This document shows positions 6,950 to 43,039 of a DNA stretch of 44,349 nt, piece by piece. Source of the DNA: an uncultured Armatimonadota bacterium (GTDB taxonomy: Bacteria > Armatimonadota > Fimbriimonadia > Fimbriimonadales > Fimbriimonadaceae). Under the pieces are notes generated by a model that worked only from the letters and a program-made list of their open reading frames with translations, was not told where the DNA came from and did not search any database. Position 1 is the stretch's first letter, and the number at the start of each line of letters is the position of its first letter. A program made the translations under genes and the position numbers. The DNA lies in the NCBI GenBank assembly GCA_903927025.1, contig CAIYLG010000030.1, positions 1 to 44,349 on the forward strand, written 5' to 3'.

Positions 6950-6957
6950 ATTCTGCT

Positions 6958-11806: not shown

Positions 11807-11864
11807 CAACCTATCCTGCGAGGCATTGTAGGGGAATATTCCCCTTCAATGCGAATCCCTTACC

Positions 11865-17317: not shown

Positions 17318-17333
17318 TTGTAAGGATTTCACC

Positions 17334-20815: not shown

Positions 20816-20828
20816 TGATTATGGTCGA

Positions 20829-22964: not shown

Positions 22965-23180
22965 GCGGAGTATTGGCCCAACCTTCAAACTGTTTCTTGT
23001 AATACGAGAACAGCTAATGGTAGTGTGCGCTGCCTGGCCATAAAACTTTAGGATCAAAAACCTGTCAAAGTTGCCTCTTTTTAGGCTGTTGCCAACTCAT
23101 GGCGGACATTATTGGGAGCATCCCTCGTCATGAGACTTCAGGCAATTTCACTTTTTTGCTGCGAGGTAATCTGAATAGGC

Positions 23181-26546: not shown

Positions 26547-27194
26547 ATGTTCAAGCAGATTCGGAGAGGTGCGAAAAGGCCCATAAAGCGCGCAGGTAGG
26601 CTGATTCGGTTGATGCGCGCACTTCTACAGCAACCGCAGCTGTCTCAGCTGTTGGAGCGATGCCGCAGGCAAGATTCGCGAGCCTGGGCGCAGTTGGTGG
26701 ATCAGTATCGAATGTTGGTCTACTCAGTAGCTCGACGTCACGGTCTAAACTCCGAAGACGCCGAGGATGTGTTCGTAAGCACTTTTGAGATACTCCTCAA
26801 ATCTTTGGACCGGATCGAAACTCCAGAGGCCCTACCTAAGTGGCTGGCAGTCACCGCTGGACGAGAAAGCCTTCGGCTGAGGCGGCTCTCCCAACGGTAT
26901 CCAGAAATCGATTCCTCCACTCTGCCGCTCGAGGAGATCATCGAGAACGAAGAACAGCGTGCAGATGCGATTGCAATCTCAGCCCTGAGGTCGAAGCAGG
27001 TCCGAAGTGCGTTGGAGCGAATCGACCCTCGATGTCGAGAACTCTTGCGCAAACTCTATTTCGAAGAGTCAACCTCTTACTCGGATATCAGCGCAGAACT
27101 TGGAATGCCGGTAGGCGCAATCGGTCCGACTCGCGCCCGGTGTCTGGAAAAGCTGCGATCCAATCTTGCCAGAGAAGATTTTTTTGAAGAATAG
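26547..27194 (+). CDS. ECF-type RNA polymerase sigma factor
   Basis: A 215-residue alternative sigma factor. Region 2 is seen in AWAQLVDQYRMLVYSVARRHGLNSEDAEDVFVSTFEILL (about residues 47-85) and region 4 in LRKLYFEESTSYSDISAELGMPVGAIGPTRARCLEKLR (about 169-206), whose helix-turn-helix reads the -35 element. The first ~30 residues are very basic and may be a non-native extension: the ATG at 26613 (MRALLQQP) would give a more usual length. No strong ribosome-binding site marks either start. It leads an operon with an anti-sigma-like gene 39 bp downstream, a TPR-CHAT protease and a secreted subtilase, and probably transcribes its own operon and the divergent lipoprotein gene. Confidence 0.93.
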   Translation: MFKQIRRGAKRPIKRAGRLIRLMRALLQQPQLSQLLERCRRQDSRAWAQLVDQYRMLVYSVARRHGLNSEDAEDVFVSTFEILLKSLDRIETPEALPKWLAVTAGRESLRLRRLSQRYPEIDSSTLPLEEIIENEEQRADAIAISALRSKQVRSALERIDPRCRELLRKLYFEESTSYSDISAELGMPVGAIGPTRARCLEKLRSNLAREDFFEE

Positions 27195-27233
27195 GTATCA
27201 GGCCCCGCCGGACTCCGCTCCATTAAGAAAGCC

Positions 27234-27764
27234 ATGAATTTGCCGTGCAGACAGATAAGAGCCAAGATTGCTGACTCCTTGGACAGCTCCATGGATCCAG
27301 TCGTGTTGGAGCACACTCAGGTTTGTGCAGGGTGCCGTAAGATCCTTAAGCAAACGGCTCAGTTGCTGGACGCTGCCAATGGTGCTTGGGAAGCACCTTC
27401 TGTGAGAATTGTCAGCCGAGTCCTTGGCCTTATGCCGGAATCGCGCAGGATCCTAGTTGGCAAAAGAATTCAGATTGGGGGACTGTTGCCCGCCCGCGGC
27501 CCAGTTGAGGAATTCCAGATTGTTATCGGTAGTGAGGATGTATCGGTGCGACTTCTGGCCACGCCGGAACGACAAGGCTGGGTGATCAGGGGCCGTCTTC
27601 CGTCACCGGATTGGCTGGCAGAGGCTGAGTTTCCGATCACGATCTCCGAAGATAGATTTGAGATGTTTGTCCCCAGCCTAGAGGAGTCGAGCTTTGAACT
27701 GGTCGGACCGGCCGAAGTTCTTCGAATTCCAGCGCTGTCAGAAGTGATTGCGGATGAGTCCTAG
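27234..27764 (+). CDS. zinc-finger anti-sigma-like protein, no membrane span
   Basis: A 176-residue protein. Near the N-terminus Cys5 and the motif His27-x3-Cys31-x2-Cys34 (HTQVCAGC) match the zinc-binding anti-sigma (ZAS) pattern that holds ECF sigma factors inactive. The rest (residues about 60-176) is a soluble beta-rich domain with repeated acidic and hydrophobic stretches (FQIVIGSEDVSVRLLA, FPITISEDRFEMFVPSLEES) that I do not recognise. Unlike many anti-sigmas it has no transmembrane segment, so the signal is received in the cytoplasm. Its end overlaps the CHAT gene start by 11 bp. Its position between a sigma and a protease gene makes it the natural candidate substrate of that protease; this is inference. 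Confidence 0.75.
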   Translation: MNLPCRQIRAKIADSLDSSMDPVVLEHTQVCAGCRKILKQTAQLLDAANGAWEAPSVRIVSRVLGLMPESRRILVGKRIQIGGLLPARGPVEEFQIVIGSEDVSVRLLATPERQGWVIRGRLPSPDWLAEAEFPITISEDRFEMFVPSLEESSFELVGPAEVLRIPALSEVIADES

Positions 27765-30387: not shown

Positions 30388-31574
30388 AGAGAGCCATCAG
30401 TCGTCTTTCAATTCTCCTGTTGCTGGCGGCAGCGGGATCTGCCAATGCGCAGAATCTCATTTGCCGGCTAGCGCCTGGCGTAACGGCCCAAAGCCTGGCC
30501 GTAAAGTACGGCATCAACCTCATTGACTTCACCCCAGGTGCGCCATTCGCTATCTTCGAGGGAAGTTCTGACGCTGTATCCAACGAACTGCAGAATGACC
30601 CTGGCGTTGTCTGGCTGGAGGATGACGAGGCAGTCGGTTCTCCAGAAGATCAGTCCAAAGGAAAACCAACGAAAGGAGGTGGACTGCCGGCAGTCGGAAC
30701 TCGCAGCGGGCTGCAGAAGATTAACAAGAACATTCTCCGTCAGATCGGATGGAGCGCAAACATTGCCGCATCCACTGGACGGACGGTTCATGTGGCCATT
30801 CTCGACACAGGTCTGGGCCCCAAGCAGACTGCATTGTGGGCAAAAGTTGATGCAAGCATGAACACGGTAGAGCCTGGCTCTCCTGCCTACGATATTCCGC
30901 ATGGCACCGATTCAAACGGAAACGGTATTCCTGACGAGGCAGTTGGCCACGGCACAATGATCGCAGGAATCATCGACCAGATCGCACCAAATGTTCGCCT
31001 AAATGTAGCCCGCATTACCGACTCAGATGGAATTGCGACGGGATGGAGCGTCATTAAGGGGCTCGCATTTGCCGTTTCGTCTAAGTCCGAGATTGCGAAC
31101 GTCTCGCTCGGCTCCCTAACCAATGTTCCCGCCCTCAGCGACGTGATGGAATGGTGCCTCGCAAATAATCTCCTCATCGTCGCGCCAATCGGCAATAACG
31201 ATCTTCAGGTGATCTGCTACCCCGCGAAGATTGAAGGGGCCCTTTGTGTCGGAGGCGTGGATGCTATTAACCAGAAGGCTTCCTTCAGCAACTGGAACAG
31301 CAACTGCGCCGTGTCTGCTCCATCGGTGGGCTTTGCAAGCCAGTTCTGGGATGGGTCACTCGCGATCTGGTCGGGAACCTCCTTCGCAGCACCTGTTGTG
31401 GCGGCTACGATTGCAGAAGCCCTTCGTCACTCGAAGGCGAGTGATCCACAGTCAATGATCCAGGCTACCAAGTCCACGGGGAACCAGCTCATTCACATGA
31501 ATCCGGCATACAAGAATAGGATGGGGGTTCTCGTGAACTTCACGCGATTGGTCAACTACTTCAACAAGCCATAG
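30384..31574 (+). CDS. secreted subtilisin-like (S8) serine protease
   Basis: A 396-residue exported protease. The ATG at 30384 overlaps the CHAT stop (ATGA) and gives a clean signal peptide (MKRAISRLSILLLLAAAGSANAQ is the leader region, cleaved near residue 23). Residues about 25-85 look like an I9-type propeptide (LICRLAPGVTAQSLAVKYGI, GVVWLEDDEAV). The catalytic triad is complete: Asp141 (ILDTGLG), His189 (VGHGTMIAGI), Ser333 (SGTSFAAPV), with the oxyanion Asn near 271 (PIGNND). A Ca-binding-like Asp/Asn stretch TDSNGNGIPD lies just before the His. Substrates are unknown. Being last in a sigma/anti-sigma/CHAT operon, it is probably an extracytoplasmic effector of the response. It converges on ccmF with a 20-bp gap. 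Confidence 0.93.
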   Translation: MKRAISRLSILLLLAAAGSANAQNLICRLAPGVTAQSLAVKYGINLIDFTPGAPFAIFEGSSDAVSNELQNDPGVVWLEDDEAVGSPEDQSKGKPTKGGGLPAVGTRSGLQKINKNILRQIGWSANIAASTGRTVHVAILDTGLGPKQTALWAKVDASMNTVEPGSPAYDIPHGTDSNGNGIPDEAVGHGTMIAGIIDQIAPNVRLNVARITDSDGIATGWSVIKGLAFAVSSKSEIANVSLGSLTNVPALSDVMEWCLANNLLIVAPIGNNDLQVICYPAKIEGALCVGGVDAINQKASFSNWNSNCAVSAPSVGFASQFWDGSLAIWSGTSFAAPVVAATIAEALRHSKASDPQSMIQATKSTGNQLIHMNPAYKNRMGVLVNFTRLVNYFNKP

Positions 31575-31594: not shown

Positions 31595-33925
31595 TTATTG
31601 AGTGGCCGGCCTTCGGTACCAGGCCGCAAGAAGCCCGCCGATGGTCATCAGGAACAGTCCGATCCAAATGAGGATCGTCATAGGCTTGTAGAACATCTGG
31701 ATAGGGAAGAGGATATGCGTGTAGGGCATTTGAAGCCGGATGGAATGATCTGCGGCATCCATCCCATCTAAAGTTGCCCTCAGCGATGGCGATACCTGGG
31801 GGGTATCGGCACCGCTATCCAGTGACAACTTAGGCTCGCCGAAATATTCGACGCCATCCTCAACAACCTTCAACTTGGCGCCGAACGAGGTCCCCGCTGC
31901 TCCCGGCTGGCCGTGCTGAACCAATCCAATGTAAGTGATCGAAACCCCTGATCCCTCTTTGGTCTCGCCCACAGCGAAGGTTTGCGGCTGATCCCACAGG
32001 TTCGTTTGAGGTGTTTCTAAGGCCAGGTAGACATCGTGCGTTAGCGTATGCTCGATTGCAGGTGTGGTGAACGAATCCACCTTATTTCCTTCGCCTGGCG
32101 TGAGATAGTAGGCAGGCTGCGCTTCAAATGCCCGCTCTGAGGAAGTGCCTGACCCTGGGGTGACTTCAAAGATCGCCCGGTTGTGGTTATCTTTGGCTGG
32201 ATCTCCAGTCATTCGCTTGAAGGCGATTGAATAGCCCAGTCCCTTCCCCGAAGTTCCTTCCATCACCAAGATCTGTTGCTTCTGCTCCAGCCCTCGGGAG
32301 ACGATAAGGCCGCCAAGAGTCACCGCAACTCCGATGTGAGCAACGAATCCGCCAATCCCCATTTTGGAGCGCTTATAAAGTTCCGCTACCCTCCAAGCGT
32401 TTGCGGCGACGGCAACGCAAGTCAGAAAACAAAGCAGGACCACAAGAGGCGCGCGTGGAACGGACACACCGAATGGCATTGTCAATGACGAGGGTGCATC
32501 CCCTTCGCGGTGCCAGTTTGAAAGATGGAGCCCGAACATCACCAGGCTTTGCAGGAGCACAGCGATGCCGATGATCCCCCAGAACTTTTGCCCGATGCCC
32601 TTAGATTCTGACTTTCGCCAGGAAAGAAACGGCACGATGCTCATAAAGAGCATGATGGGAATGAAGAACCAGACCACTACCTGGTGATACAAGGGTTCAT
32701 CCACCACCTTCGCATCCTTGCCTAAAAGGCCGTACAGAAACGGCACGCTCATCCCAAGTCCCACTGAAACTGCCAGTACAGATAGGAGGATCACGCCTCC
32801 TGTGAACCCAGTTTCACGTGGAGAACTGTTGGTCTCCTCTGATACCAACACCTTCCGAGTTGCTGACCGTCCTTTTGTCCACCAAAGTCCAAGGAAGCCG
32901 CTCATGGCAAACACCAGGAAGCTCAGCAGAAACCACAGAGCCGTTCGATTCATCTGGGCAAAGCTGTGAACGCTGAATTTGTCCAAATAGCCTGAGCGGG
33001 TTAAAAATGTCCCGTAAACAAAGAGGAGAAATGGAGCGCCGGCCAGGAGCAAGTTCCCGGAGTGCCACTTCTTTCGAGTGACCTGAACCATGAGCCCATG
33101 AATCAATGCGGCTCCCATGAGCCATGGAACGAAGCTGACATTCTCAACCGGGTCCCACGCCCAAAATCCTCCCCATCCCTGAGTTTCGTAAGCCCAAAGC
33201 CCGCCCATGACGAGGCCAAGGCCCAGGATGGTGAGTGAGAGAAGCGCCCAGGGGCGAACTTTTGGGACCCATCCTTCCACATCTCCAGTGACCATCGCTG
33301 CCACCGCATACGCGAACATGACGGTGAGGGACCCAAACCCCAGGAAGATCGTAGGGGGATGGATCACAACCCAGTAATTCTGAAGCGATGGAACGAGACC
33401 GAGTCCGTTCAGTGGGATATAGACGGTGCCGCCCTGCACCATCTTCGGGAGAATCCCAAAGGGCGTCTCGAAGGTGAGAATCGAGGAAAGGCAAAGCAGA
33501 AACGCCGAAAAGACATTGACAAGAGTGCGGCGGTATTGTGCGGCGCCTCGAATAGTCAGGAGTCCAAATAGGGCAGAGCAACAGGCCCAAAGCAGGAAGC
33601 TCCCTTGCTGTCCAGCCCAAATTGCGGCGAGTTTGTATGGAAGTGAGGTTTCTCGCCAGGAATGCCCAGCAACGTATTCGTACTGGAACTGATCAAACGC
33701 GAACAGTGTGCCGAGATTGATGAAGGCGGAAAAGAGACCGGCGCAGCCTCCCCAGAAACTCCATCGAGTCCAACGTTCGGCAGCAGGTTTTAGGAGTCCA
33801 AATCCAAGGCATGCCCCAAAGCAGAGAACTGACAGAATGATAGAGCCGCGGCCCACCACGCCGACCGCTGTTGACCACAGCGGTGCGGCGTGAAAGCCTG
33901 CGGCAGCAAGCGCACGTTCATCCAT
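31595..33925 (-). CDS. ccmF: cytochrome c haem lyase subunit CcmF
   Basis: A 776-residue membrane protein of the haem-handling family. The tryptophan-rich haem-binding WWD motif is intact (GWGGFWAWDPVENVSFVPWL, about residues 249-268), and about 14 hydrophobic spans are present, with the usual large periplasmic loop before the last span. CcmF attaches haem to the CXXCH cysteines of apocytochromes in system I maturation. It is the last gene of the respiratory operon, 6 bp after the eight-haem cytochrome gene, which makes sense because that protein alone needs eight haems. Other ccm genes (A-E, G, H) are not in this window. The length is near the top of the family range (about 650-680 residues is common), from a longer C-terminal periplasmic loop. 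Confidence 0.9.
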   Translation of the reverse strand: MDERALAAAGFHAAPLWSTAVGVVGRGSIILSVLCFGACLGFGLLKPAAERWTRWSFWGGCAGLFSAFINLGTLFAFDQFQYEYVAGHSWRETSLPYKLAAIWAGQQGSFLLWACCSALFGLLTIRGAAQYRRTLVNVFSAFLLCLSSILTFETPFGILPKMVQGGTVYIPLNGLGLVPSLQNYWVVIHPPTIFLGFGSLTVMFAYAVAAMVTGDVEGWVPKVRPWALLSLTILGLGLVMGGLWAYETQGWGGFWAWDPVENVSFVPWLMGAALIHGLMVQVTRKKWHSGNLLLAGAPFLLFVYGTFLTRSGYLDKFSVHSFAQMNRTALWFLLSFLVFAMSGFLGLWWTKGRSATRKVLVSEETNSSPRETGFTGGVILLSVLAVSVGLGMSVPFLYGLLGKDAKVVDEPLYHQVVVWFFIPIMLFMSIVPFLSWRKSESKGIGQKFWGIIGIAVLLQSLVMFGLHLSNWHREGDAPSSLTMPFGVSVPRAPLVVLLCFLTCVAVAANAWRVAELYKRSKMGIGGFVAHIGVAVTLGGLIVSRGLEQKQQILVMEGTSGKGLGYSIAFKRMTGDPAKDNHNRAIFEVTPGSGTSSERAFEAQPAYYLTPGEGNKVDSFTTPAIEHTLTHDVYLALETPQTNLWDQPQTFAVGETKEGSGVSITYIGLVQHGQPGAAGTSFGAKLKVVEDGVEYFGEPKLSLDSGADTPQVSPSLRATLDGMDAADHSIRLQMPYTHILFPIQMFYKPMTILIWIGLFLMTIGGLLAAWYRRPATQ

Positions 33926-33931
33926 TCCTTA

Positions 33932-36900
33932 TCATGGCGATTTGGTGGCCTGCTTCATCAGGAAGTCGACAATTGCCAGGTATTGATCGTCCGGTTTTCC
34001 AAACGATGGCATCTGCGTTCCCGGGCTAAATCCTTGAGGGTCCTTAAGGAACCTAAAGATCCAGTCTTTCTTCAGTCGTGCCGGCGCCATGCCGAGGTCG
34101 GGTCCGAGCTTCTTCGAATCTCCACCCGCAACGCCCTGCTTACCAGCCAGAGGGTGGCAGCTTTGGCACTTCAGGTCAGAGAAGTACTTAGCACCCAGCT
34201 GAGCCAGAGGGAACACCTTCTGGTCAGGCGGTGTGTACTCATAAGGAGCCGGCTGATTCGACAGAGACATGAAGTACTCAGTGAGAGTCGTTGCCTCTTG
34301 GTCCGTGAGGTGATAGTTAGGCATTCTTGCATCTGCCCACCATCGGATTCGGATTGGCTGCTTGAGGAATTCAAACATCCACCCTGGGCGCACCATTTCC
34401 CCTTCTCGTGTGAGCTCGGGGCCAACTTTGCCGCCGACACCGGAAATGCGGTGACACGCTGCGCAATCGTGCTGTGCAAAGATACGGCGTCCTGCTAGAA
34501 GCGGCGAATTCTGCTCCTGGAGGTCCTTGGTGTACTCCGGAGGGAGTTCCTGACCTGACAGAGACATCAGATAGACGGCAATCGTCTTTGCGTCGCTCTT
34601 TTCAAGACCGAACTTCGGCATCTTGCCCTTGAACTTGTCAGTGTCAAACGAGCGGGGATCGGTGATCTTTGTGAGCATGTAGCTGTAAAGATCGCGCTTT
34701 ACGCCCTTTGCATTTCCAAACTCGAGAACGTCCGCAGTCTTGTCGCCGACATGAGTCAGCTCAGGTGCAGAGATTCTGTCGAAGCCCTTCATGTCATGGC
34801 ATCCTGCGCACCCTCTTTCCGCGATGAGCTTCTGACCGAGGTCTTTGGCTCGCGCGTCTTGGAGGTTTGGCATGAAGTCATGTGGGTTTTTCGACCCTGT
34901 CTTCACGGACAGAAGATAGTCTCCGATAAGAACCGATTGGTCCTTCGTGAGGTTGAACACCGGCATTCGGCTGTTCGGGAAGTACTGCTTCGGATTGGCA
35001 ATCCAGCCATACAGCCATTCAGGATTCACTTTCCCGCCAAGGTTGGTGAGTTCTGGGCCGATCGAGGAACCTTCTCCCCGAATCGTGTGGCATCCAAAGC
35101 ATCCGAGATTTTCGACGAGTCGTCGTCCCTGTGCTAGCCGTTGCTCGTTCATGGATGGGGGCGCGCTCGATCCTGCGGCAGTTCCACCCCGTTGCGTCAA
35201 TAGGAAAGTCGCGATGGCTCCTGCCTGGTCCTTAGAGAGACCAAGGTTAGGCATTCTCGCATCAAGAGAGTGAGATTGAGGGTTCTGTAGCCAGCCCGTG
35301 AGCCAGTCTGGATGGACCTTTTCACCGACTCGGTCCAAGTCTGGTCCGGCCTTGGTCGGTGCGCCCTGAATGACTCGCTGAGCGGCACTTGCAGTGGCGG
35401 CAGGCTGAGTGGGCTCAACCTTGTGGCAACCCAGACAACCGCTGGTCTTGAATAGCTCTGCACCGGCGAGATAGGTTGCCTCGCCTGACAGCTGCCTAGT
35501 TTCGCCGTGGCACTTACCGCAGGAGGACTGGATCTGCTCCCCAATGAGAAGCGGATGTCCCTTGCCGATATCTTCGCCATGGGCCTCTGCCTTGTTCAGA
35601 GCATTGCCGTAGCCGCCGTGGCAGCTCACACAACCGAATTTCTCAATTGGGTGATTCTTCAGAACTTCAGCGGAGTGAGTTCGAAATGGCTCAGCCTGCT
35701 TTTCAAAACCAGGCTGCTCTACTGCCTTGTGACAGGTTGTGCAGCGGTCGATGGACCCTAGGCGATCAGCATAGTTCTGCTCAACAGCGGCACCGTTGGT
35801 TTGGTTTCGTGAGAGTCGTCCCTGCACGAGTCGCAGATCTTTTTGGAGAGAGGCGACGTGTGCCTTTAGGTTCGTGTCCGAGTCCTTCAGCTGCTTGATT
35901 CGATCAGCGGGCTGAGCCTCTAGTTGCTTCCTTGAAACAAGCTCGTTGAGCGCCTGACCATCAGCCGCCCACTTCGCCACCTGGGCCGCAGTCTTAACCA
36001 CGCTCTTGGCTTCTTCAAGGTCGACACTGGTTTTAGCGACTTCAAGCGACTGCTGCGCTTCCGTCCACTTGCCCTGAGAGATGTCTCGCTTCAGCGTGGC
36101 ATCTTCAGGAAGGCCAATCTTTTCCTTGTTGAAGGTTCGCTCCGCAGTGATGAGGTCTCGTTGTGCGGCTTCCAAGCGTGCCTGAGCCGCGGGGACATCA
36201 ACTTTAAAGTCCGCTTCCTCAAATGTCAGCGTATCTTCTGGCTTGGCTGCCGTTGCAGCGGTTGCCGCACCCTGGGAGCCACTGGCCTTTGCCGTGCCGG
36301 TGTCCTTGAACTCTTTGTCAAGGTCCGCCATTTCTGAACTCTCGCCTTTGGCGGGAGCTGTCGTCTGCTTTCCAGAGGCTGGCGCAGGTGTGGCCGGTGC
36401 CGGTTTGGAAGAGGAGCTGCTAAATTCCTTGTCAAGGTCGTCTAGCTCGTTCTTGGAGGCAGAGGCGGGAGCTGGAGAAGCCTTGCCCGGCTTAGCGGGT
36501 GCCGATCCTGGGGCCGGCTTAGACTTATCTCCGCTGGCAAACTCTTTATCCAAGTCATCCAGCTCTTTGCCTGAGGCTTTCGCTGGTGCTGCCGCCGGGG
36601 CTACCTTTGCCGGAGGGGTCGAACCTGACTTTGCAGATCCGCCGGCAAACTCTTTGTCAAGGTCATCCATCTCAGACTTGCTTGAAGTTGGAGCGCCGCC
36701 CTTCGCAGGAGCTGCGGCTGGCGTGGCGGGAGCAGGAGCTGAACCGCCTTCTTCGTCTTTGCCTGCGTTGAGGCGGACTTCTTTCTCTTCCAGATCGGCT
36801 TCAGTGCCTTCCAGAGCGGAAGTGGCGGCGTCAGACTTTGCTTTAGAAGCCAAGTAGGCCGCCTTCGCCTTCTTATAGTCCTCAAGGTAAGTCGGGTGGT

Positions 36901-37114
36901 TGATTTGGCGGAGCAGGTCTTCCTGCTTAGCCAGAAGAACTGACCTTTCGAGAGAAGTGAATTTCTCCTGATAGACAAGCCATTCTGGGTGGGTGTCTTT
37001 CCACATGGAAACGCCCATCACGAGCAAGACCACGACGCTCATCACGAAGAACAGAATGTTCATGTGAAGTCCTGTGCGGACTTCTTTACGATGCCGAGTT
37101 ACTGCCACGGCCAT
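33932..37114 (-). CDS. membrane-anchored eight-haem cytochrome c with acidic repeat region
   Basis: A 1060-residue protein from the ATG at 37114, which has GGAGGTG just upstream; a GTG four codons earlier is also open. Residues about 18-37 are a single membrane span. Then follow a charged segment, a Pro/Ala/Ser/Lys-rich region with four LDDLDKEF-type motifs (149-269), a coiled-coil-like stretch (about 300-445), and eight CXXCH haem sites starting at Cys458, 495, 532, 560, 672, 769, 884 and 983. The last five each have a following MP motif (Met621, 717, 832, 931, 1035), as in His/Met class I cytochrome c domains; the first three lack one and may be bis-His. It probably replaces cytochrome c1/f as electron acceptor of the Rieske/cytochrome b complex encoded upstream. 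Confidence 0.93.
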   Translation of the reverse strand: MAVAVTRHRKEVRTGLHMNILFFVMSVVVLLVMGVSMWKDTHPEWLVYQEKFTSLERSVLLAKQEDLLRQINHPTYLEDYKKAKAAYLASKAKSDAATSALEGTEADLEEKEVRLNAGKDEEGGSAPAPATPAAAPAKGGAPTSSKSEMDDLDKEFAGGSAKSGSTPPAKVAPAAAPAKASGKELDDLDKEFASGDKSKPAPGSAPAKPGKASPAPASASKNELDDLDKEFSSSSSKPAPATPAPASGKQTTAPAKGESSEMADLDKEFKDTGTAKASGSQGAATAATAAKPEDTLTFEEADFKVDVPAAQARLEAAQRDLITAERTFNKEKIGLPEDATLKRDISQGKWTEAQQSLEVAKTSVDLEEAKSVVKTAAQVAKWAADGQALNELVSRKQLEAQPADRIKQLKDSDTNLKAHVASLQKDLRLVQGRLSRNQTNGAAVEQNYADRLGSIDRCTTCHKAVEQPGFEKQAEPFRTHSAEVLKNHPIEKFGCVSCHGGYGNALNKAEAHGEDIGKGHPLLIGEQIQSSCGKCHGETRQLSGEATYLAGAELFKTSGCLGCHKVEPTQPAATASAAQRVIQGAPTKAGPDLDRVGEKVHPDWLTGWLQNPQSHSLDARMPNLGLSKDQAGAIATFLLTQRGGTAAGSSAPPSMNEQRLAQGRRLVENLGCFGCHTIRGEGSSIGPELTNLGGKVNPEWLYGWIANPKQYFPNSRMPVFNLTKDQSVLIGDYLLSVKTGSKNPHDFMPNLQDARAKDLGQKLIAERGCAGCHDMKGFDRISAPELTHVGDKTADVLEFGNAKGVKRDLYSYMLTKITDPRSFDTDKFKGKMPKFGLEKSDAKTIAVYLMSLSGQELPPEYTKDLQEQNSPLLAGRRIFAQHDCAACHRISGVGGKVGPELTREGEMVRPGWMFEFLKQPIRIRWWADARMPNYHLTDQEATTLTEYFMSLSNQPAPYEYTPPDQKVFPLAQLGAKYFSDLKCQSCHPLAGKQGVAGGDSKKLGPDLGMAPARLKKDWIFRFLKDPQGFSPGTQMPSFGKPDDQYLAIVDFLMKQATKSP
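36308..36670 (-). repeat. four coding repeats of an LDDLDKEF-type motif
   Basis: Within the multihaem cytochrome gene, the eight-residue motif occurs as MDDLDKEF, LDDLDKEF, LDDLDKEF and MADLDKEF at residues 149, 185, 224 and 262, spaced 36-39 residues apart and joined by Pro/Ala/Ser/Lys-rich linkers. The motifs are conserved while the linkers vary, which suggests selection on the motif. Confidence 0.9.
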
Positions 37115-37788
37115 ACCCACCTCCACTCCGGTCCACGGAAGAACTGGCCGATCATGACCAGAATAAACAAGATGCCGACAAACGTGAGAAAGAGCTTGTT
37201 CCGCAGCTTCTCAACCTTTGCTTCATCATCGAACGCCGAGCTAAGAACGAATTTCCCGAGTACCAGTGCGCTGATCACCAGCATCACCATCGTGGGGAAG
37301 CCATAACTTCGCGTTGCATCAGCGAAGGAAGGAGCAACGGCATGAATGCCCGCCCAGATGATTCCGTCTGTTAGGGGCACAAGGATCAGTGCCAACAGAA
37401 ACATGATGGGGAACAGCACAAACCGGCCGCGCCAGTAGGGCACCGTGCACATCACGATGACGATCAATCCTGGGATCACGACGCCTGAGATAAACGGAGG
37501 CGCGTAGTGAAGCATTTCCTGTAAGGACAGGAAGTACCAGGGAGCTTTAGCCGGGTTCGGCGTCTTTCCTGGGTTAGCCAACTCCTCAAGCGGAGCGTCA
37601 AACAGGAAGGAGAAGACGAGAAGTGCCGCTAACATAAGCCCAAAGGCTAGAAACTCGCGAGCAACGAGGTGAGGGTAGCTGGATACGCGATCGGCATCTG
37701 GGTCTGGAAGGTTCTTGGGATGTCCTTCGATAAACCCAAGAAGCCCAAACTCTTTGTCGCCGGTACCCTTAGAAGGGATATCCGCCAT
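37099..37788 (-). CDS. cytochrome b C-terminal subunit (subunit IV / PetD-like)
   Basis: A 229-residue membrane protein with about four spans, equivalent to the C-terminal part of cytochrome b (helices E-H) or to subunit IV of b6f complexes. It carries the quinol-oxidation-site loop, but the family PEWY motif reads APWY here (residues 82-85, NPAKAPWYFLSLQEML). The N-terminus PDPDADRVSSYPHLVAREFLAFG also matches the split type. Its ATG overlaps the stop of the cytochrome b6-like gene by one base (TAATG), and its end overlaps the multihaem cytochrome start by 16 bp. It contributes the Qo pocket of a quinol-oxidising complex. The missing Glu of PEWY is known in some menaquinone-type complexes. 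Confidence 0.88.
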   Translation of the reverse strand: MADIPSKGTGDKEFGLLGFIEGHPKNLPDPDADRVSSYPHLVAREFLAFGLMLAALLVFSFLFDAPLEELANPGKTPNPAKAPWYFLSLQEMLHYAPPFISGVVIPGLIVIVMCTVPYWRGRFVLFPIMFLLALILVPLTDGIIWAGIHAVAPSFADATRSYGFPTMVMLVISALVLGKFVLSSAFDDEAKVEKLRNKLFLTFVGILFILVMIGQFFRGPEWRWVWPWQ

Positions 37789-38633
37789 TACTTGCCTCCT
37801 GAGAAGCCGTCTTTACGCACTCGCCAGAAGTGATAGACCATGAACAGGGAGATCACTAGAGGAAGCACCACCACGTGGAGCACGAAGAATCGTATGAGAG
37901 TCGCCTGATCCACGTTGGGACCACCCAGAAGGATGTAGCGAACCTTGGAGCCGATGAACGGGATCGAACCCGCCATGTTGGTTCCAACCGTGACTGCCCA
38001 AAGCGCTAGCTGGTCCCAAGGAAGCAGGTAGCCAGTGAAGCTGAGCCCCATGGTGAGGCAGAGGAGAATGACTCCTACAACCCAGTTGAGCTGCCGCGGT
38101 GCCTTGTACCCCTTCTGGAGGAAGACACGAAGCATGTGCATTGAGACAACGACGACCATCGCGTGGGCAGACCAGCGGTGCATGTTGCGCAGGATCTTTC
38201 CAAGCGAGACCACATGCTGCAGGTCGACCATGTCTTTGTAGGCGTGGTCGGTTGCCGGAACGTAGTAGAACATCTCCATGATGCCGGTAACGGCAAGAAC
38301 CATAAAGAGTCCGCACGCCAACCCGCCGAGCCCGTAGGTGACACCAAATTTGAGGGTCTCACGGCGAATGAAAGCAGGATGGATGTGTAGCCAAAAGCTA
38401 GAAATCGCAATCTCAGAGTTGTCTTTGGGAGTCTGAGGGTAGGGTCCGGCAAAAACAGATTTCCAAGGTGTGGAGCGCACAATATCCTTTCGGAGCGCTT
38501 CACGAAATCCCTTGGACATCATCGACGGTCGGGCTTCCGAGTCCGTCGAATTCAAATATTTGGAAGCATTTGTCGTGCGAAAAGCCTGACCAATTCGCTT
38601 CCATAAGCCTCTTTCGATCGGTTCGTCGCTCAT
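37788..38633 (-). CDS. cytochrome b6-like subunit of a Rieske/cytochrome b complex
   Basis: A 281-residue membrane protein, helices A-D of cytochrome b. The four haem ligands can be read: His152 and His166 (H-X13-H, MHRWSAHAMVVVVSMHML) and His253 and His268 (H-X14-H, LHVVVLPLVISLFMVYH); X14 in helix D is the b6f-type spacing. The Qo element GYLLPWDQLALWAV is intact. The Cys that binds extra haem cn in plant b6 and Bacillus QcrB appears to be Gly101 here (TYGLGGLACG). An unusually long hydrophilic N-terminus of ~85 residues precedes helix A. Its start overlaps the Rieske stop (ATGA). It moves electrons across the membrane from quinol. Confidence 0.93.
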   Translation of the reverse strand: MSDEPIERGLWKRIGQAFRTTNASKYLNSTDSEARPSMMSKGFREALRKDIVRSTPWKSVFAGPYPQTPKDNSEIAISSFWLHIHPAFIRRETLKFGVTYGLGGLACGLFMVLAVTGIMEMFYYVPATDHAYKDMVDLQHVVSLGKILRNMHRWSAHAMVVVVSMHMLRVFLQKGYKAPRQLNWVVGVILLCLTMGLSFTGYLLPWDQLALWAVTVGTNMAGSIPFIGSKVRYILLGGPNVDQATLIRFFVLHVVVLPLVISLFMVYHFWRVRKDGFSGGK

Positions 38634-39103
38634 ATTCTGTACTTGTCCTTGGGAGAGATGAGCGTCCTCTTGTCGACGATCAGTTCGCCCGAGTTGCCCA
38701 TCGAAATCTCGTAGGCTTCGAGGGGTTTGGGGGCCGGACCGGCATAGTTCGTGCCATCTGGCTTAAAGCGACTTCCGTGACATGGGCAGAAGAAACCCGG
38801 CTTGTCCGGATCGGTGCGAACTGCGCATCCAAGATGGGTGCAAACAGCAGATAGCGCCATGAAGGTGTCGCCATCTCGAACGATAAACACCTGTTGCTCT
38901 GGCAGATAGGTTGCCTGCTTATCGGGAAAGTCCTTCGGCGAGCCGATCTTGAACCTTTGGTTCTTTCCGTAAAGCACATTGGGAACCACAAATCGAAACG
39001 CGCCAAGCGCAATCAGTCCGATTGACGTCAAAAACGCAAAAATTCCACCCAAGAAGAAACGCCTCGAGTGGAGTTCCTCCTGACCTGGTTCAGACTGCGA
39101 CAT
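38630..39103 (-). CDS. Rieske iron-sulfur protein
   Basis: A 157-residue protein from the ATG at 39103, chosen because AGGAGG lies 6 bases upstream; the frame opens earlier but without such a site. The N-terminus has an RR pair (SRRFFLGGIFAFLTSIGLIALGAF) and one span, consistent with Tat-dependent insertion. The 2Fe-2S ligands are in CTHLGCAV and CPCHGSRF: two Cys, two His, plus the disulfide Cys pair. It takes the first electron from quinol at the Qo site and passes it to the multihaem cytochrome. The gene starts inside the 3' end of the NAD(P) oxidoreductase gene (14-bp overlap) and its stop overlaps the next start. Confidence 0.95.
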   Translation of the reverse strand: MSQSEPGQEELHSRRFFLGGIFAFLTSIGLIALGAFRFVVPNVLYGKNQRFKIGSPKDFPDKQATYLPEQQVFIVRDGDTFMALSAVCTHLGCAVRTDPDKPGFFCPCHGSRFKPDGTNYAGPAPKPLEAYEISMGNSGELIVDKRTLISPKDKYRI

Positions 39104-40943
39104 ATCCTTCCTCCTCGTATTTGCCCATCCACATAGCACCAACTGGGCAACGTTCGACGCACAGGGCGCAGCGAGTACATTTCTCCTCGTCCTTCAGCAT
39201 CGCAAACCATTTATTTCCGGTCTCAGTCTCGGAGCTGCTCATGTCGGACACGGTGACTCCGTGTCTCGCTTCGGCAAGCTCGCCAACTTTGGCCTCACCT
39301 TCAAGCCTGTCGACCGGGACGATCTTCAGACAGCCGTATGGGCAGACGTCAACACATCCTCCGCACAAAACGCACTTGTCCCAGTCCACCATCGGGACTC
39401 GGTTGCACTTGAGGCATCTCGATGCCTCGGTCATGGCCTCTTCGCGGGTGTAGCCGAGTTCCACCTCGGTCACGCCCGTTCTTCTGTCGATGGACAGGGT
39501 AGGCACTTCGAGCCGCTCGATCCGGTCGTACTCGGCGGGCATCTTGTGCATGGGAAGCATCGTCAGCCGAGGTCGCTCAGCGTCCTGATCAACGCCGGTA
39601 CCCGAGAGGAATCGATGAATGGCCACGGCGGCACGCCTTGCATCGGCGATTCCTTCGATTGCAGTTCGAGCTCCGAAGGCAACGTCTCCGCCGACATAAA
39701 CGCCTGGCAGATTGGTGGACATTGTTTTGCCGTCCGCCTTTACAAAGCCAGAGGGTGTTCGATCCAAAGCATTTTCTTCACCAAGGAACGATAGGTCGGG
39801 CATTTGTCCGATTGCGAGCAGAATCGTGTCGCACTCGATGACCTCTTCTGAGTTCGGTTCGAACTTAGGCGAGAACCGACGATTCTCGTCGAAAACTGAA
39901 ATGCAGTTGACGGTCTGCAGTCCAGCGCACTTCCCATCCTTTGCAACGACCTTTGTTGGACCTCGAGAGTTGTGAAGCGTGATGCCCTCTCGCAGGGTCT
40001 CTTCAAGTTCTTCGTCGTGAGCCGGCATTTCTTGGAACGACTCCAAGCAGACAAGGTGAACTTCACCCGCCCCAAGGCGCATGGCTGACCGAGCAATATC
40101 GATCGAAGCTTCGTATCGATGATCCTCATCTGGAACCAGGATGCCGGCTTCTCGCGCTGCAGTTCGAGCCACGTCGACTGCGACGTTGCCACCGCCGACC
40201 ACCACGACTCGATTGCCCAGTGGAACCTTGTATCCAAGGCTGACATTCAGCAGGAAGTCGATTCCATTAATGACGCCGTCAGTCTCAACGCCTTCGATCC
40301 TCAGATCGCGTCCTTTTTGAGCGCCGACTGCAAGGAAGATTGCCTTGTAGTCTCGACGAATGTCGCTGAAGGAGATATCTTTGCCAACCTTCGTGTTCAT
40401 CCGAACCTCGACGCCGACATTGAGAAGGCCCTCGATCTCGGATTGAATGACCTGGCGGGGTAGCCGATACTCTGGCACGCCGTGGTACAGCATTCCACCA
40501 AGCTGGTTGGAGCCCTCGAACAGCGTGACGTCGTATCCGTAAAGTGTGAGGTCGTGTGCGGCAGTGACGCCTGCGGGACCTGCGCCGATCACGGCGACTT
40601 TCTTGTTCTGTTTCGATCTTTTGGGTATTCCGCCGCCCTGTCGCATCGCGCCGCTCGATAGGTCAACTGCGGCACGCTTCAGAGCACGGATGGAAAGCGG
40701 TAGATCGTGAACTCCGCGTCGACACGCCGTTTCGCACGGGTGACCGCAGATTCTTGAACAGACGTTTACAAAAGGGTTCGGCCTACGAGCAAGCTCGTAG
40801 GCCGTATCAAAATCCCCCAGCGATATCGCTTCGATGTAGCCCTGCGCATTGGTATGCACTGGGCATGCGGCGCGGCAGCTGACGTTTTTGCGCAGCCAGT
40901 CCGCATCGACAACCTTTGCTTTGAACTTGGGTAGAAGCGACAT
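39090..40943 (-). CDS. FAD/NAD(P)-dependent iron-sulfur oxidoreductase (GltD-like) with C-terminal ferredoxin domain
   Basis: A 617-residue protein. The N-terminal ~100 residues have the GltD-type Cys array (SCRAACPVH, then VCSRICGHPCETACRRG) for two 4Fe-4S clusters. FAD binds at VAVIGAGPAGVTAAHD and NAD(P) at VVVVGGGNVAVDVA. The C-terminal ~100 residues add CVLCGGCVDVCP (from about 524) and CTRCALCVERCP (from about 589), a 2x4Fe-4S ferredoxin module. No signal peptide, so it is on the cytoplasmic face. It is not glutamate synthase: no large subunit is present, and the next genes encode Rieske and cytochrome b. It would connect NAD(P)H to this complex, as in anammox Rieske/cytochrome b clusters. 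The direction of electron flow is unknown. Confidence 0.9.
   Translation of the reverse strand: MSLLPKFKAKVVDADWLRKNVSCRAACPVHTNAQGYIEAISLGDFDTAYELARRPNPFVNVCSRICGHPCETACRRGVHDLPLSIRALKRAAVDLSSGAMRQGGGIPKRSKQNKKVAVIGAGPAGVTAAHDLTLYGYDVTLFEGSNQLGGMLYHGVPEYRLPRQVIQSEIEGLLNVGVEVRMNTKVGKDISFSDIRRDYKAIFLAVGAQKGRDLRIEGVETDGVINGIDFLLNVSLGYKVPLGNRVVVVGGGNVAVDVARTAAREAGILVPDEDHRYEASIDIARSAMRLGAGEVHLVCLESFQEMPAHDEELEETLREGITLHNSRGPTKVVAKDGKCAGLQTVNCISVFDENRRFSPKFEPNSEEVIECDTILLAIGQMPDLSFLGEENALDRTPSGFVKADGKTMSTNLPGVYVGGDVAFGARTAIEGIADARRAAVAIHRFLSGTGVDQDAERPRLTMLPMHKMPAEYDRIERLEVPTLSIDRRTGVTEVELGYTREEAMTEASRCLKCNRVPMVDWDKCVLCGGCVDVCPYGCLKIVPVDRLEGEAKVGELAEARHGVTVSDMSSSETETGNKWFAMLKDEEKCTRCALCVERCPVGAMWMGKYEEEGYVAV
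39106..39116 (-). promoter_or_regulatory. Shine-Dalgarno site that fixes the Rieske start
   Basis: AGGAGG (minus strand, 39110-39115) sits 6 bases before the ATG at 39103 and lies inside the last codons of the upstream oxidoreductase gene (the YEEEG residues). It decides between the internal ATG and the longer open frame. Confidence 0.8.
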
Positions 40944-40957
40944 CTTTTCTCCAGGGA

Positions 40958-42343
40958 TTAGAACGCGAAGTTGAACAGCATGCCCAGCAGGTTCTGCTTG
41001 GCGCCGGAAACGTCGCGGGTGTATTCCAGACCAGCCCAGAAGTTGGTTCGGAAGTAGTAGGTGTAGTTGGCCGTCAGCGCGTTGGTAATCGTCGGCTGAA
41101 GGTTGGCAATGTTGTTGCTCTCAACCTTGTCGTAGCGAAGGAAGCACATGCTCTTCGGGCTGACGCAGTAGTTAAGCTCGGCATAGTAGCCCTTGAACGA
41201 AGCGCGAAGGCCGTCGTTGTTGGGGTTGTCAACCTGGCCGGTGAGATATCCGCCAAGAAGGTTGAATGGCTTAGCCTTGAGACCCTGGGTCTTTTCAAAC
41301 GGCTTGCCGAAGTAGTAGCTGAAGTCAGGTCCGATCTCTCGATACCGATTGGTGACGCCAGATCCAACTGACATCAGGCCACTGTAGGCCGCGATACCTA
41401 TGAATGAGTCTCCGCCAAAGTAGGCGTTGACGCGGGCCGTATAGTCTGAGGGATTTGGACTGAATTGGCTCGTGCTGAGGTTGAGACTGTTGTAGACGCC
41501 AACCTCCCACAGATAGCCAGTGAGCTTGTCCATCGGGTCGATGGTTTCAGACTCTTCCATGTCCTTATCTTTTTGACCCTTCTGCATTCGCATCGGGCGG
41601 ACTGGATCCTCTCCCTTGGCTTTCTCTTCTGCGGGTTGCTTATCATCTCCGCCTGCAAACTTGCCGTGGATGAGGTCGGGGCTAACCGACGCTCCGATGA
41701 GTCCATAAACCTTAACACCCATATTGGTGTTGCTGAGGAACCAAGGATTTGGAGTGACTCCGCCGGAAGCAAGGCCGAGATCTTGAATGCCGTAGCCGTT
41801 GCGACCGTACAGGTCGTGCTCGGTGACGCCGTGCTCTACTGGATCCAGGTTGCCTACCTGAAGGAACAGGTTGCGGTTGCCAAGGTGGCTGAAGATTGCC
41901 GACACCTTGCCGATGTCAGTCACTCCGCCTGAAGTAGCCAATTCGCCGAAGAAACTCATGTCCTGGGCGAAGCTGTCTGCGGCAAATATATGGAAAACAG
42001 TTGGGCTAGAGATGCCGTTGGAAGCCTGGCTTCCTGCTGCCTTATCTAGCTGGAGCTGATTCTCGATGAGGAATGCAACCGGAAGCTGCTCAGGCAGGGT
42101 CAGGTTCTTGTCTTCAGGGTATTCAAGCTTTCCGACGCTCTTGTCGCCAGGTTGCTGATATCCGTGAAGCTGGAAATTCTTGCCGAAAGTGTTGAGCTTA
42201 GGAACGGCAAGGTGGCATCGCGAACACGTTGTTTTGTACTTGCGAGCGAAATAGGGAATGGCTGATGACTTGGACGGAATCGCCGTGACCAGCAGAACGA
42301 AGAGAGTCGGCACGATGAGTGCCGATTTCTTAAATGGAGTCAT
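40958..42343 (-). CDS. monohaem outer-membrane beta-barrel-like protein
   Basis: A 461-residue exported protein from the ATG at 42343 (MTPFKKSALIVP), preceded by GAGG; a frame to 42370 adds nine basic residues. After the signal peptide comes one haem-binding motif CSRCH in YKTTCSRCHLAVPKLNTFGKNF, then about 400 residues with alternating, Tyr/Gly/Asn-rich strands and a C-terminal Phe, as in outer-membrane barrels. Similar monohaem porin-like proteins occur in Acidobacteria and metal-reducing bacteria, but their function is unclear. A highly charged Lys/Glu/Asp insertion in the middle (DDKQPAEEKAKGED to KDKDMEESE) looks like a large loop. It could carry electrons to or through the outer membrane. 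It lies between the cupredoxin and oxidoreductase genes. Confidence 0.75.
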   Translation of the reverse strand: MTPFKKSALIVPTLFVLLVTAIPSKSSAIPYFARKYKTTCSRCHLAVPKLNTFGKNFQLHGYQQPGDKSVGKLEYPEDKNLTLPEQLPVAFLIENQLQLDKAAGSQASNGISSPTVFHIFAADSFAQDMSFFGELATSGGVTDIGKVSAIFSHLGNRNLFLQVGNLDPVEHGVTEHDLYGRNGYGIQDLGLASGGVTPNPWFLSNTNMGVKVYGLIGASVSPDLIHGKFAGGDDKQPAEEKAKGEDPVRPMRMQKGQKDKDMEESETIDPMDKLTGYLWEVGVYNSLNLSTSQFSPNPSDYTARVNAYFGGDSFIGIAAYSGLMSVGSGVTNRYREIGPDFSYYFGKPFEKTQGLKAKPFNLLGGYLTGQVDNPNNDGLRASFKGYYAELNYCVSPKSMCFLRYDKVESNNIANLQPTITNALTANYTYYFRTNFWAGLEYTRDVSGAKQNLLGMLFNFAF

Positions 42344-42415
42344 TTTGGACCTCGGTTTCCGCGAGGCCAATCGATTTGGAACCAGTCACCCAACCGGTTG
42401 ACCTCACGATTTCGG

Positions 42416-43039
42416 TTACTGTGTGACCTTAAAAATCGCCTTGGCACGTCCACCGGCGGTGACCGTTACTGACTGCGTCGTCGATGAGCCTTTATCCGAC
42501 CAAATCTTCAAGGTGTACGTTCCGGCAGGAACATCACCGATCTGGAATTGACCCTTTGCGTTGGAAACGGCAAAGTAGGGGTTAGGCAGAACCACGATGT
42601 ACGCCTTCATGTTGGCGTGGATGTGGCATCGAATCGGAATCAGCCCCGTCTTATCGAAGGTGAGCTCTGAGACGTCTCCCTTCTTTTCTTGGCTGACGTT
42701 GAACATCTTGATCCGTGAGCTGGAGAAGACGTTGTGGAAGAACGGATCTGAGTTATTGAACTTAACTTTGGATCCCTTGAGAATCGCGAGAACGTGCGGA
42801 ATAAACTGCTTGTCCTTCTGGTCCATCATGACCCCGGCTGAAGGCGGAGAGTAGTTGCCGGGTGCTTCAGAAATGCTGATGACAGCATCTTCCACACGGG
42901 TGGACCCCATTTCGACGATGCCGATGATTTCACCGTTAGCTTTAACAGGCACACTTGCGGGTGATGCTCCCCCCGCGAGGGCCATAACCACGGCCATTGC
43001 ACCAACTCCTAGTGTCTTTCGAGCGATGTTTGACTTCAT
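42416..43039 (-). CDS. periplasmic cupredoxin (plastocyanin-like) with C-terminal carboxypeptidase-regulatory-like domain
   Basis: A 207-residue exported blue-copper protein. The ATG at 43039 is chosen for the AAAGGAGG before it; the frame opens to 43150 without a start signal. A signal peptide covers residues 1-29. Type 1 copper ligands can be read as His102 (FFHNVFS), Cys138, His141 and Met144 (RCHIHANM). The last ~50 residues (GQFQIGDVPAGTYTLKIWSDKG) are a carboxypeptidase-regulatory-like beta-fold. It probably shuttles electrons in the periplasm, between the multihaem cytochrome and another acceptor, or to the monohaem barrel. First gene of the operon. Confidence 0.88.
   Translation of the reverse strand: MKSNIARKTLGVGAMAVVMALAGGASPASVPVKANGEIIGIVEMGSTRVEDAVISISEAPGNYSPPSAGVMMDQKDKQFIPHVLAILKGSKVKFNNSDPFFHNVFSSSRIKMFNVSQEKKGDVSELTFDKTGLIPIRCHIHANMKAYIVVLPNPYFAVSNAKGQFQIGDVPAGTYTLKIWSDKGSSTTQSVTVTAGGRAKAIFKVTQ

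What the first reader, a model, noticed from the sequence alone, without database searches (positions are those of the whole stretch)
31595..43039. Rieske/cytochrome b operon with NAD(P) oxidoreductase, eight-haem cytochrome, cupredoxin and barrel-type cytochrome
Eight genes in one direction with tiny gaps or overlaps couple a GltD-like FAD/Fe-S NAD(P) enzyme to Rieske, split cytochrome b, a multihaem c, periplasmic copper and outer-membrane haem proteins. Complexes joining an NAD(P) oxidoreductase to Rieske/cytochrome b are described in anammox planctomycetes such as Kuenenia. Finding one in a probable heterotroph with an added outward path (cupredoxin, monohaem barrel) suggests a route for electrons from NAD(P)H or quinol toward the outer membrane, or quinol-driven NAD(P) reduction.
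Basis: partly seen in the sequence, partly recalled or inferred. Interest (0 to 1): 0.75.

Follow-up and report, generated by a model that had tools for sequence, protein, structure and literature searches.

The report
NADH-linked Rieske complex wired to Cyc2
A bacterium of the phylum Armatimonadota carries one operon that joins an inner-membrane respiratory complex fitted with an NADH-type enzyme to a copper protein and to an outer-membrane pore protein of the iron-oxidizing Cyc2 type; the same gene set is conserved in at least six phyla, and its direction of electron flow is untested.

Summary
In detail: eight co-directional minus-strand genes (43039-31595) with overlaps or gaps of at most 72 bp. 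They encode a blue-copper protein, a monohaem barrel, a GltD-like FAD/Fe-S enzyme, Rieske, b6-type cytochrome b, a five-helix subunit IV, an octahaem c and CcmF.

Two things were identified. (1) The core is the NAD(P)-linked Rieske/cytochrome b (R/b) complex known from anammox (Kuenenia Kustd1480-85 and Kuste4569-74). In 79 of 80 best relatives, across 13 phyla, the GltD-like gene sits beside Rieske/cytochrome b genes. (2) The barrel meets the sequence criteria published for the Cyc2 fused cytochrome-porin (Fe(II) oxidase) family. Barrel, copper protein and R/b-NAD core recur as one cluster in six phyla, so they are not a local add-on.

The enzyme has Leu-Glu where ordinary GltD paralogues have the NADPH-binding Arg pair, so NAD(H) is predicted. 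The Rieske carries the Ser/Phe pair of Kustd1480 (+335 mV). The haem cN cysteine is missing.

Most likely mechanism (inferred): menaquinol bifurcation reducing NAD+, with the high-potential electron entering an octahaem/copper pool that Cyc2 also feeds. Electron export is the main rival. I found no report of this combination in the papers searched.

The parts
42416..43039 (-). Periplasmic blue-copper protein (cupredoxin, 207 aa, signal peptide) with a C-terminal beta domain; ligands His102, Cys138, His141, Met144 (amicyanin-type C-x2-H-x2-M loop)
   Evidence: ligands invariant in 28 homologues; model pLDDT 89.8; amicyanin and plastocyanin matches
40958..42343 (-). Cyc2-type outer-membrane fused monohaem cytochrome-porin (461 aa): AIPYFARKY, CSRCH, PKL, 16-stranded barrel
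   Evidence: published Cyc2 motif met; 16 strands; OprP/OprO Z 23.5, tied with other 16-stranded porins
39090..40943 (-). GltD-like FAD/NAD oxidoreductase (617 aa): N-terminal Cys cluster, two Rossmann motifs, C-terminal RCLKC plus two 4Fe-4S ferredoxin motifs; cytoplasmic; predicted NAD(H)-specific (CLES at 299-302 in place of YRR)
38630..39103 (-). Rieske 2Fe-2S protein (157 aa) with RRFF twin-arginine-like N terminus and one membrane helix; Ser/Phe tuning pair (CPCHGSRF) as in Kustd1480
37788..38633 (-). b6-type cytochrome b (281 aa): haem ligands H152/H166 and H253/H268; H83 in LHIHP at the proposed interface haem; Gly101 at the haem cN cysteine position
37099..37788 (-). Subunit IV-like cytochrome b C-terminal part (229 aa), five predicted membrane helices, NPAKAPWYF in place of PEWY
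33932..37114 (-). Membrane-anchored octahaem cytochrome c (1060 aa), eight CXXCH, with an insert of about 380 aa ahead of the first haem found only in this family among the loci compared
31595..33925 (-). CcmF/NrfE-type haem lyase (cytochrome c maturation), 6 bp downstream; linkage not conserved in relatives

Best explanation
The operon encodes a trans-envelope electron chain built around an NAD-linked Rieske/cytochrome b complex of the kind described in anammox bacteria. Shown by sequence and models: a cytoplasmic FAD/Fe-S NAD-type reductase, a b6/IV-type membrane core with a Kuenenia-type Rieske, a membrane-anchored octahaem c, a soluble blue-copper protein, and an outer-membrane Cyc2-type cytochrome-porin. 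Inferred mechanism: menaquinol is oxidised at the outer quinone site with bifurcation. One electron goes to the high-potential Rieske and on to the octahaem c and copper/cytochrome pool, then to the haem-copper oxidase. The other goes through haems bP and bN (and possibly a dimer-interface haem on His83) to the Fe-S chain, FAD and NAD+. Cyc2 passes electrons from a dissolved extracellular donor, most likely Fe(II), into the same periplasmic pool. The cell is then an aerobic heterotroph that can gain energy from, or spare NADH with, an inorganic donor. Identity and architecture: about 0.9. The full mechanism, including direction, is much less sure; the confidence below is for identity plus mechanism together.
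For: Identity: Rieske best PDB matches are Kuste4569 (110 bits) and Kustd1480 (87 bits) ahead of b6f at 64 bits. GltD-like genes sit beside Rieske and/or cyt b in 79 of 80 named relatives in 13 phyla; the exception, L113, is a 4.5 kb contig. Distances of the GltD-like and cyt b proteins correlate at r = 0.90, best permutation 0.20. The barrel meets the Cyc2 motif AXPXFAR[Q/K][T/Y]-CXXCH-PXL of PMC8406198 and models as 16 strands. Barrel and GltD-like gene co-occur: 14 genomes with both, out of 21 with the barrel and 16 with the enzyme, in 95 genomes of an Acidobacteriota order, Fisher p 5.8e-10, adjacent on the same strand in all 14; in the host family the only five strong barrels of 85 genomes are the five operons. 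Mechanism: Rieske Ser/Phe pair as in Kustd1480, measured at +335 mV (PMC12954380), while the genome's ordinary Rieske has Gly; menaquinone is reported for Fimbriimonas (PMC4072686), so the symmetry argument of PMC12954380 for a low-potential bP haem applies. Glu301 replaces the NADP Arg pair in 80 of 81. The haem cN cysteine is absent in 74 of 77, which removes the roughly 250 mV uphill step that PMC12954380 lists as a difficulty. Complex I and haem-copper oxidase are present, so a plain NADH-to-quinone role would be redundant.
Against: I found no report that any member of the R/b-NAD family has been assayed for NAD reduction. The genus has no RuBisCO, so a strong need for lithotrophic NADH is not evident. 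His83 is also invariant in R/b complexes without an adjacent GltD-like gene, so it does not prove an electron path. Lack of haem cN is equally compatible with an ordinary bc1-like inner quinone site. Cyc2 of these phyla was placed in Cluster 3 in one survey (PMC9671151), the cluster whose function is called most uncertain (PMC8406198). Electrons from Cyc2 cannot reach NAD+ through this complex alone; run in reverse it would consume NADH.
Confidence: 0.42

Rival explanations
1. Electron export: NADH (through FAD, Fe-S and b haems to the quinone) and menaquinol are oxidised by the complex, and the electrons leave through octahaem c, copper protein and the Cyc2-like porin to an extracellular acceptor such as Mn(IV), humics or Fe(III) at low pH.
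For: Trans-envelope gene set in one operon; hosts are uncultured, mostly heterotroph lineages and the genus lacks RuBisCO, so an overflow route for NADH would be useful when oxygen is scarce.
Against: Tested Cyc2 proteins oxidise Fe(II), one with a potential near +208 mV (PMC8406198), and the Rieske type here is measured at about +300 mV in Kuenenia, so ferric oxides at neutral pH are poor acceptors. Complex I already serves NADH oxidation with proton pumping.
Confidence: 0.25
2. Fe(II)-driven confurcation: electrons from Cyc2 through the copper protein and Rieske combine with electrons from NADH to reduce menaquinone, driven by the proton-motive force (the same complex run backwards).
For: Bifurcating complexes are reversible in principle; Cyc2 is operon-linked; the mean of Fe(II) and NADH potentials lies near or below that of menaquinone (inference).
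Against: It consumes NADH and proton-motive force, and Fe(II) electrons could go straight to the oxidase.
Confidence: 0.08
3. An ordinary proton-pumping quinol:cytochrome c reductase; the GltD-like protein is a soluble electron-transfer enzyme that shares the operon but not the complex, and Cyc2 and the copper protein only feed the oxidase.
For: R/b complexes of the same clade without an adjacent GltD-like gene exist; loss of the haem cN cysteine makes the inner quinone site more bc1-like.
Against: Near-universal linkage, distance correlation 0.90, a dedicated enzyme clade with its own cofactor signature, and a separate ordinary R/b complex in the same genome. Co-migration of the subunits was reported for Kuenenia (PMC12954380).
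Confidence: 0.17

Closest known systems
Kuenenia stuttgartiensis Kustd1480-1485 and Kuste4569-4574 R/b complexes (Kartal 2013; PMC12954380)
   Same: Rieske, b6-like cyt b, five-helix subunit IV, multihaem c and GltD-like NAD(P) oxidoreductase in one cluster; Ser/Phe Rieske pair as in Kustd1480; LHxH motif and Arg-Lys; a copper protein lies next to the Kustd1480-like cluster in a Brocadiales relative
   Different: Here a Cyc2-type porin is added, the haem cN cysteine is Gly, there is no HAO-like octahaem enzyme, gene order differs, and the host belongs to an aerobic Armatimonadota lineage
Cyc2 fused cytochrome-porin family (PMC8406198, PMC7029218)
   Same: AXPXFAR[Q/K][T/Y], single CXXCH, PXL, 16-stranded porin, over 365 aa
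   Different: Fe(II) oxidation not tested; cluster placement not tested; embedded in an R/b-NAD operon with a blue-copper protein
Acidithiobacillus ferrooxidans Cyc2-rusticyanin-bc1 chain (described in PMC10654088)
   Same: Cyc2, a periplasmic blue-copper protein and a bc-type complex in one electron route
   Different: There NADH is made by a separate complex I; here the NAD enzyme is in the R/b operon and an octahaem c replaces cytochrome c1 and c4
Nitrospina gracilis, Kuenenia and Methylomirabilis operon of b6/IV cytochrome b with octahaem c (PMC3578206)
   Same: Rieske, split b6-type cytochrome b and an atypical octahaem c
   Different: No Cyc2-type porin described in the passages read
ExtP/ExtQ/ExtS of the selenite/tellurite reduction operon (NCBIfam NF040969, NF040970, NF040971)
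   Same: Best curated family for cyt bN (271.5 bits) and for the subunit IV part
   Different: All below the curated cut-offs (290, 150 and 100 bits)

Membership tests
Anammox-type NAD(P)-linked R/b complex | GltD-like FAD/Fe-S oxidoreductase gene next to Rieske and cytochrome b genes | tested here: met
Anammox-type NAD(P)-linked R/b complex | b6-like cytochrome b with two His pairs | tested here: met
   H152/H166 and H253/H268 conserved in every aligned relative that covers them
Anammox-type NAD(P)-linked R/b complex | Subunit IV with five membrane helices | tested here: met
   five hydropathy peaks
Anammox-type NAD(P)-linked R/b complex | Hexa- or octahaem c-type partner | tested here: met
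   eight CXXCH
Anammox-type NAD(P)-linked R/b complex | Interface haem residues (His62 and Arg266/Lys267 of Kustd1481; His43 and Arg247 of Kuste4571) | tested here: met
   map to H83, R273 and K274 through close relatives L162 and L163, allowing for a numbering shift; not discriminating, since unlinked complexes share H83
Anammox-type NAD(P)-linked R/b complex | Haem cN (cysteine at b6 Cys35), present in the Kuenenia models; variable in the wider family, so not treated as defining | tested here: not met
   Gly101 in the window; Cys in 3 of 77 R/b-linked complexes; Scalindua L082 also lacks it
Anammox-type NAD(P)-linked R/b complex | Physical complex and NAD(P) reduction | not testable with these tools
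   needs biochemistry
Cyc2 fused cytochrome-porin | AXPXFAR[Q/K][T/Y] about 5 residues before CXXCH and PXL 4 residues after | tested here: met
   AIPYFARKYKTTCSRCHLAVPKL
Cyc2 fused cytochrome-porin | Single haem motif and at least 365 aa | tested here: met
   461 aa, one CXXCH
Cyc2 fused cytochrome-porin | 16-stranded porin domain | tested here: met
   16 strands in the model, mean pLDDT 70 with weaker loops; OprP/OprO tied with other 16-stranded porins
Cyc2 fused cytochrome-porin | Placement in Cyc2 clusters 1-3 | not tested
   no reference Cyc2 sequences were fetched
Cyc2 fused cytochrome-porin | Fe(II) oxidation | not testable with these tools
   needs assay
Ordinary glutamate synthase small subunit (GltD) | NADPH-binding Arg pair (YRR) and clustering with GltD | tested here: not met
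   CLES in place of YRR; the genome's own GltD (C26) groups with a Scalindua GltD, apart
Canonical bc1 or b6f complex | Cytochrome c1 or f as the c-type subunit | tested here: not met
   the only inner-membrane c-type subunit in the operon is the octahaem c
ExtP/ExtQ/ExtS (NCBIfam) | Score above the curated cut-off | tested here: not met
   271.5 of 290, 56.3 of 150, 75.1 of 100 bits
Type-1 copper protein (cupredoxin) | His-Cys-His-Met ligand set and cupredoxin fold | tested here: met

The most novel reading that the evidence does not exclude
A widespread, unnamed respiratory module in which a Cyc2-type outer-membrane iron oxidase, a blue-copper carrier and an octahaem hub are wired to a bifurcating R/b complex that reduces NAD+ directly from menaquinol. 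This would be an uphill arm that bypasses complex I, present in aerobic heterotroph lineages of at least six phyla, with the anammox complexes as one specialised branch.
Probability: 0.35. Interest if true: 0.85.

Novelty: new variant of a known kind. Interest (0 to 1): 0.62.

Why it matters
Whether an R/b complex can hand one bifurcated electron to NAD+ has been open since it was proposed for anammox bacteria, which are hard to work with. The same complex, with a conserved NAD(H)-type signature, a high-potential-type Rieske and mostly without haem cN, occurs in 13 phyla here, including aerobic lineages. That makes the proposal testable on many more proteins. The operon also gives Cyc2 homologues of Acidobacteriota, Bacteroidota, Ignavibacteriota, Gemmatimonadota, Nitrospirota and Armatimonadota, a family used as an iron-oxidation marker but of uncertain function in these groups, a specific set of electron partners.

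Tried and rejected
Two literature calls failed on terms with brackets. RuBisCO was looked for as a sign of autotrophy and not found in 20 genomes of the genus. The Arg of Kustd1483/Kuste4570 (Arg550/Arg511) could not be mapped, because the exact Kuenenia proteins were not in hand. A first HMM survey timed out and was replaced by phmmer. Ordinary GltD, canonical bc1/b6f and ExtP/Q/S membership were considered and not met. CcmF was dropped from the conserved module. A role of the complex in moving Cyc2 electrons directly to NAD+ was rejected on mechanism: run backwards it would oxidise NADH. No tandem repeat was found at DNA level in the operon. Targeted searches of the held papers for Cyc2 together with Rieske operons gave nothing that described this cluster; subscription papers are not held, so this is weak evidence of novelty.
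Full report
What is there. In order of transcription: cupredoxin (43039-42416), monohaem barrel (42343-40958), GltD-like FAD/Fe-S oxidoreductase (40943-39090), Rieske (39103-38630), cytochrome b N-terminal part (38633-37788), C-terminal part/subunit IV (37788-37099), octahaem cytochrome c (37114-33932), CcmF (33925-31595). Gaps are at most 72 bp and several genes overlap. Pfam and NCBIfam agree with these labels; the barrel has no library match and the cupredoxin only a weak one.

Host. The window is contig C30 of a 5.25 Mb, 98% complete genome. The nearest named relatives are Armatimonadota MAGs, including a Fimbriimonas sp. (L053). The genus carries complex I in 20 of 20 genomes, a haem-copper oxidase in 19 of 20 and no RuBisCO. 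Fimbriimonas ginsengisoli is a strict aerobe with menaquinones MK-11 and MK-10 (PMC4072686). The genome also has a second, ordinary Rieske/cytochrome b pair. The operon is an accessory: 4 of the 20 genomes of the genus and one genome of another genus carry it.

Conservation. Four relatives have the seven genes from cupredoxin to octahaem c in the same order where the contig allows (L033-L036). A scan of 84,980 species genomes with an alignment of the GltD-like protein gave 385 relatives; the best 80 were kept. Of these, 79 have Rieske and/or cytochrome b next to the GltD-like gene; the exception, L113, is a 4.5 kb contig. They cover Armatimonadota, Acidobacteriota, Bacteroidota, Ignavibacteriota, Nitrospirota, Nitrospinota, Gemmatimonadota, Zixibacteria, Verrucomicrobiota, Chloroflexota, Thermodesulfobacteriota, Binatota and Planctomycetota (including anammox Scalindua, L082). 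The query alignment was itself made of R/b-linked proteins, so the figure describes the nearest relatives and not all GltD-like proteins. In 25 of the 80 loci both the monohaem barrel and the copper protein precede the GltD-like gene; outside the window's own family the order of these two is reversed.

The barrel is of the Cyc2 type. Keffer and co-workers define Cyc2 by AXPXFAR[Q/K][T/Y] shortly before a single CXXCH and PXL four residues after, fused to a 16-stranded porin (PMC8406198). The window has AIPYFARKYKTTCSRCHLAVPKL. The AlphaFold model (31 sequences, mean pLDDT 70, loops weak) has a small helical haem domain and 16 barrel strands; OprP and OprO head the structural list at Z 23.5, tied with other 16-stranded porins. 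Barrel and GltD-like gene are linked: in 95 genomes of an Acidobacteriota order, 21 have the barrel, 16 the GltD-like gene, 14 both, all 14 adjacent on the same strand 705-747 bp apart (Fisher p 5.8e-10, not corrected for shared ancestry). In the host family, the only five strong barrels among 85 genomes are the five operons. Cyc2 genes of Acidobacteriota, Armatimonadota, Bacteroidota and Gemmatimonadota in one hot-spring survey fell in Cluster 3 (PMC9671151), whose function is called most uncertain (PMC8406198). I could not place the window's barrel in a cluster.

The copper protein. His102, Cys138, His141 and Met144 are invariant in 28 homologues from the operons; the model (pLDDT 90) matches amicyanin and plastocyanin. 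A homologue also lies beside the Kustd1480-like cluster of a Brocadiales genome (L162) and in Scalindua.

The R/b-NAD core. The Rieske's two best solved matches are the Kuenenia proteins Kuste4569 (9rk4, 110 bits) and Kustd1480 (9rk3, 87 bits); the best b6f is at 64 bits. Subunit IV has five hydropathy peaks, as stated for Kuenenia (PMC12954380). His83 is conserved in 77 of 77 aligned cytochromes b and corresponds, through close relatives, to the His proposed to bind an extra interface haem in Kuenenia, with Arg273 and Lys274 at the charge-compensating positions. But His83 is also invariant in unlinked complexes, so it is not diagnostic. The cysteine that holds haem cN in b6f and in the Kuenenia-like sequences is Gly101 here and is present in only 3 of 77.

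The NAD enzyme. Its tree separates the R/b-linked enzymes, with the anammox ones close by, from the ordinary GltD of the same genome (quick tree, some weak nodes). It keeps the N-terminal cysteine cluster, RCLKC, and two C-terminal ferredoxin motifs. Where ordinary GltD-like paralogues have YRR, the Arg pair that by established knowledge of GltD/NfnB contacts the NADPH 2'-phosphate, the R/b-linked enzymes have a Leu-Glu motif (CLES in the window), Glu in 80 of 81 (PDB alignment). I infer NAD(H); the Kuenenia model used NADP. Distances of GltD-like protein and cytochrome b correlate at r = 0.90 against at most 0.20 in permutations, which fits inheritance as a unit but does not exclude shared species history.

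Energetics (inference). The window's Rieske has the Ser/Phe pair of Kustd1480, measured at +335 mV (PMC12954380); Ser is present in all 73 R/b-linked Rieske proteins where the motif was readable, whereas the ordinary Rieske of the same genome has Gly there. With menaquinone near -70 mV, the symmetry argument of PMC12954380 gives a bP haem low enough to reach NAD+. The roughly 250 mV uphill step through haem cN discussed there does not arise in a complex without cN. Run backwards the complex would combine Rieske electrons with NADH electrons to reduce menaquinone; it cannot carry Fe(II) electrons to NAD+ on its own. Cyc2 therefore most plausibly shares the octahaem/copper pool with the high-potential branch, feeding the oxidase, and is not in series with the NAD branch. 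Direction remains open: an export role is the main rival.

Verdict. Observation confirmed; interpretation partly supported. It is a new variant of a known kind: the anammox-type NAD-linked R/b complex, without haem cN, in a conserved operon with a Cyc2-type porin and a blue-copper protein. The searches of the held papers found the parts but not the combination.

Noticed in passing
window 37114-33932, residues about 75-450 of the octahaem protein: The family of the window has an insert of about 380 aa before the first haem (first haem at residue 451-481, against 70-82 in other phyla), partly Ala/Pro/Lys-rich with repeated DDLDKEF units; it may be a tether.
   Followed up: partly
L097:4144-7561, L111:4453-7821, L075:5696-7096: A histidine kinase and a sigma-54 response regulator (L097, L111), or at least the sigma-54 response regulator (L075), lie directly upstream of the operon in other phyla; they could show which signal controls it.
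   Followed up: partly
L064, L057, L096, L124: R/b-NAD complexes with other periplasmic partners (4- to 6-haem or 12-haem proteins), as if a fixed R/b-NAD core were combined with exchangeable electron-transfer modules.
   Followed up: no
L111:16834-19564: Next to the Gemmatimonadota operon lie an eight-haem c7-type protein and an NrfD-type membrane protein.
   Followed up: no
L087:10486-13212: Downstream of the Desulfobacterales operon: a protein joining an ethylbenzene-dehydrogenase-type haem domain to a histidine kinase.
   Followed up: no
window 26547-31574 (+): Sigma-70-like factor, unknown protein, CHAT-TPR protein and subtilase in a row, a possible protease-signalling module next to the operon.
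   Followed up: no
window 3754-23057: Carbohydrate-degradation genes (apiosidase-like, alpha-L-fucosidase, GH92) and a DUF1800/DUF1501 pair, which fit a heterotroph.
   Followed up: no
L033:8085-14125: Upstream of the operon in a close relative: a MauG-type di-haem peroxidase, 2-oxoacid:ferredoxin oxidoreductase subunits and a second GltD-like gene.
   Followed up: no
G000, G091, G093 and G095 (genomes): The four genomes of the genus with the operon are among the largest of the genus (5.3-6.5 Mb; most others 2.6-4.9 Mb).
   Followed up: no
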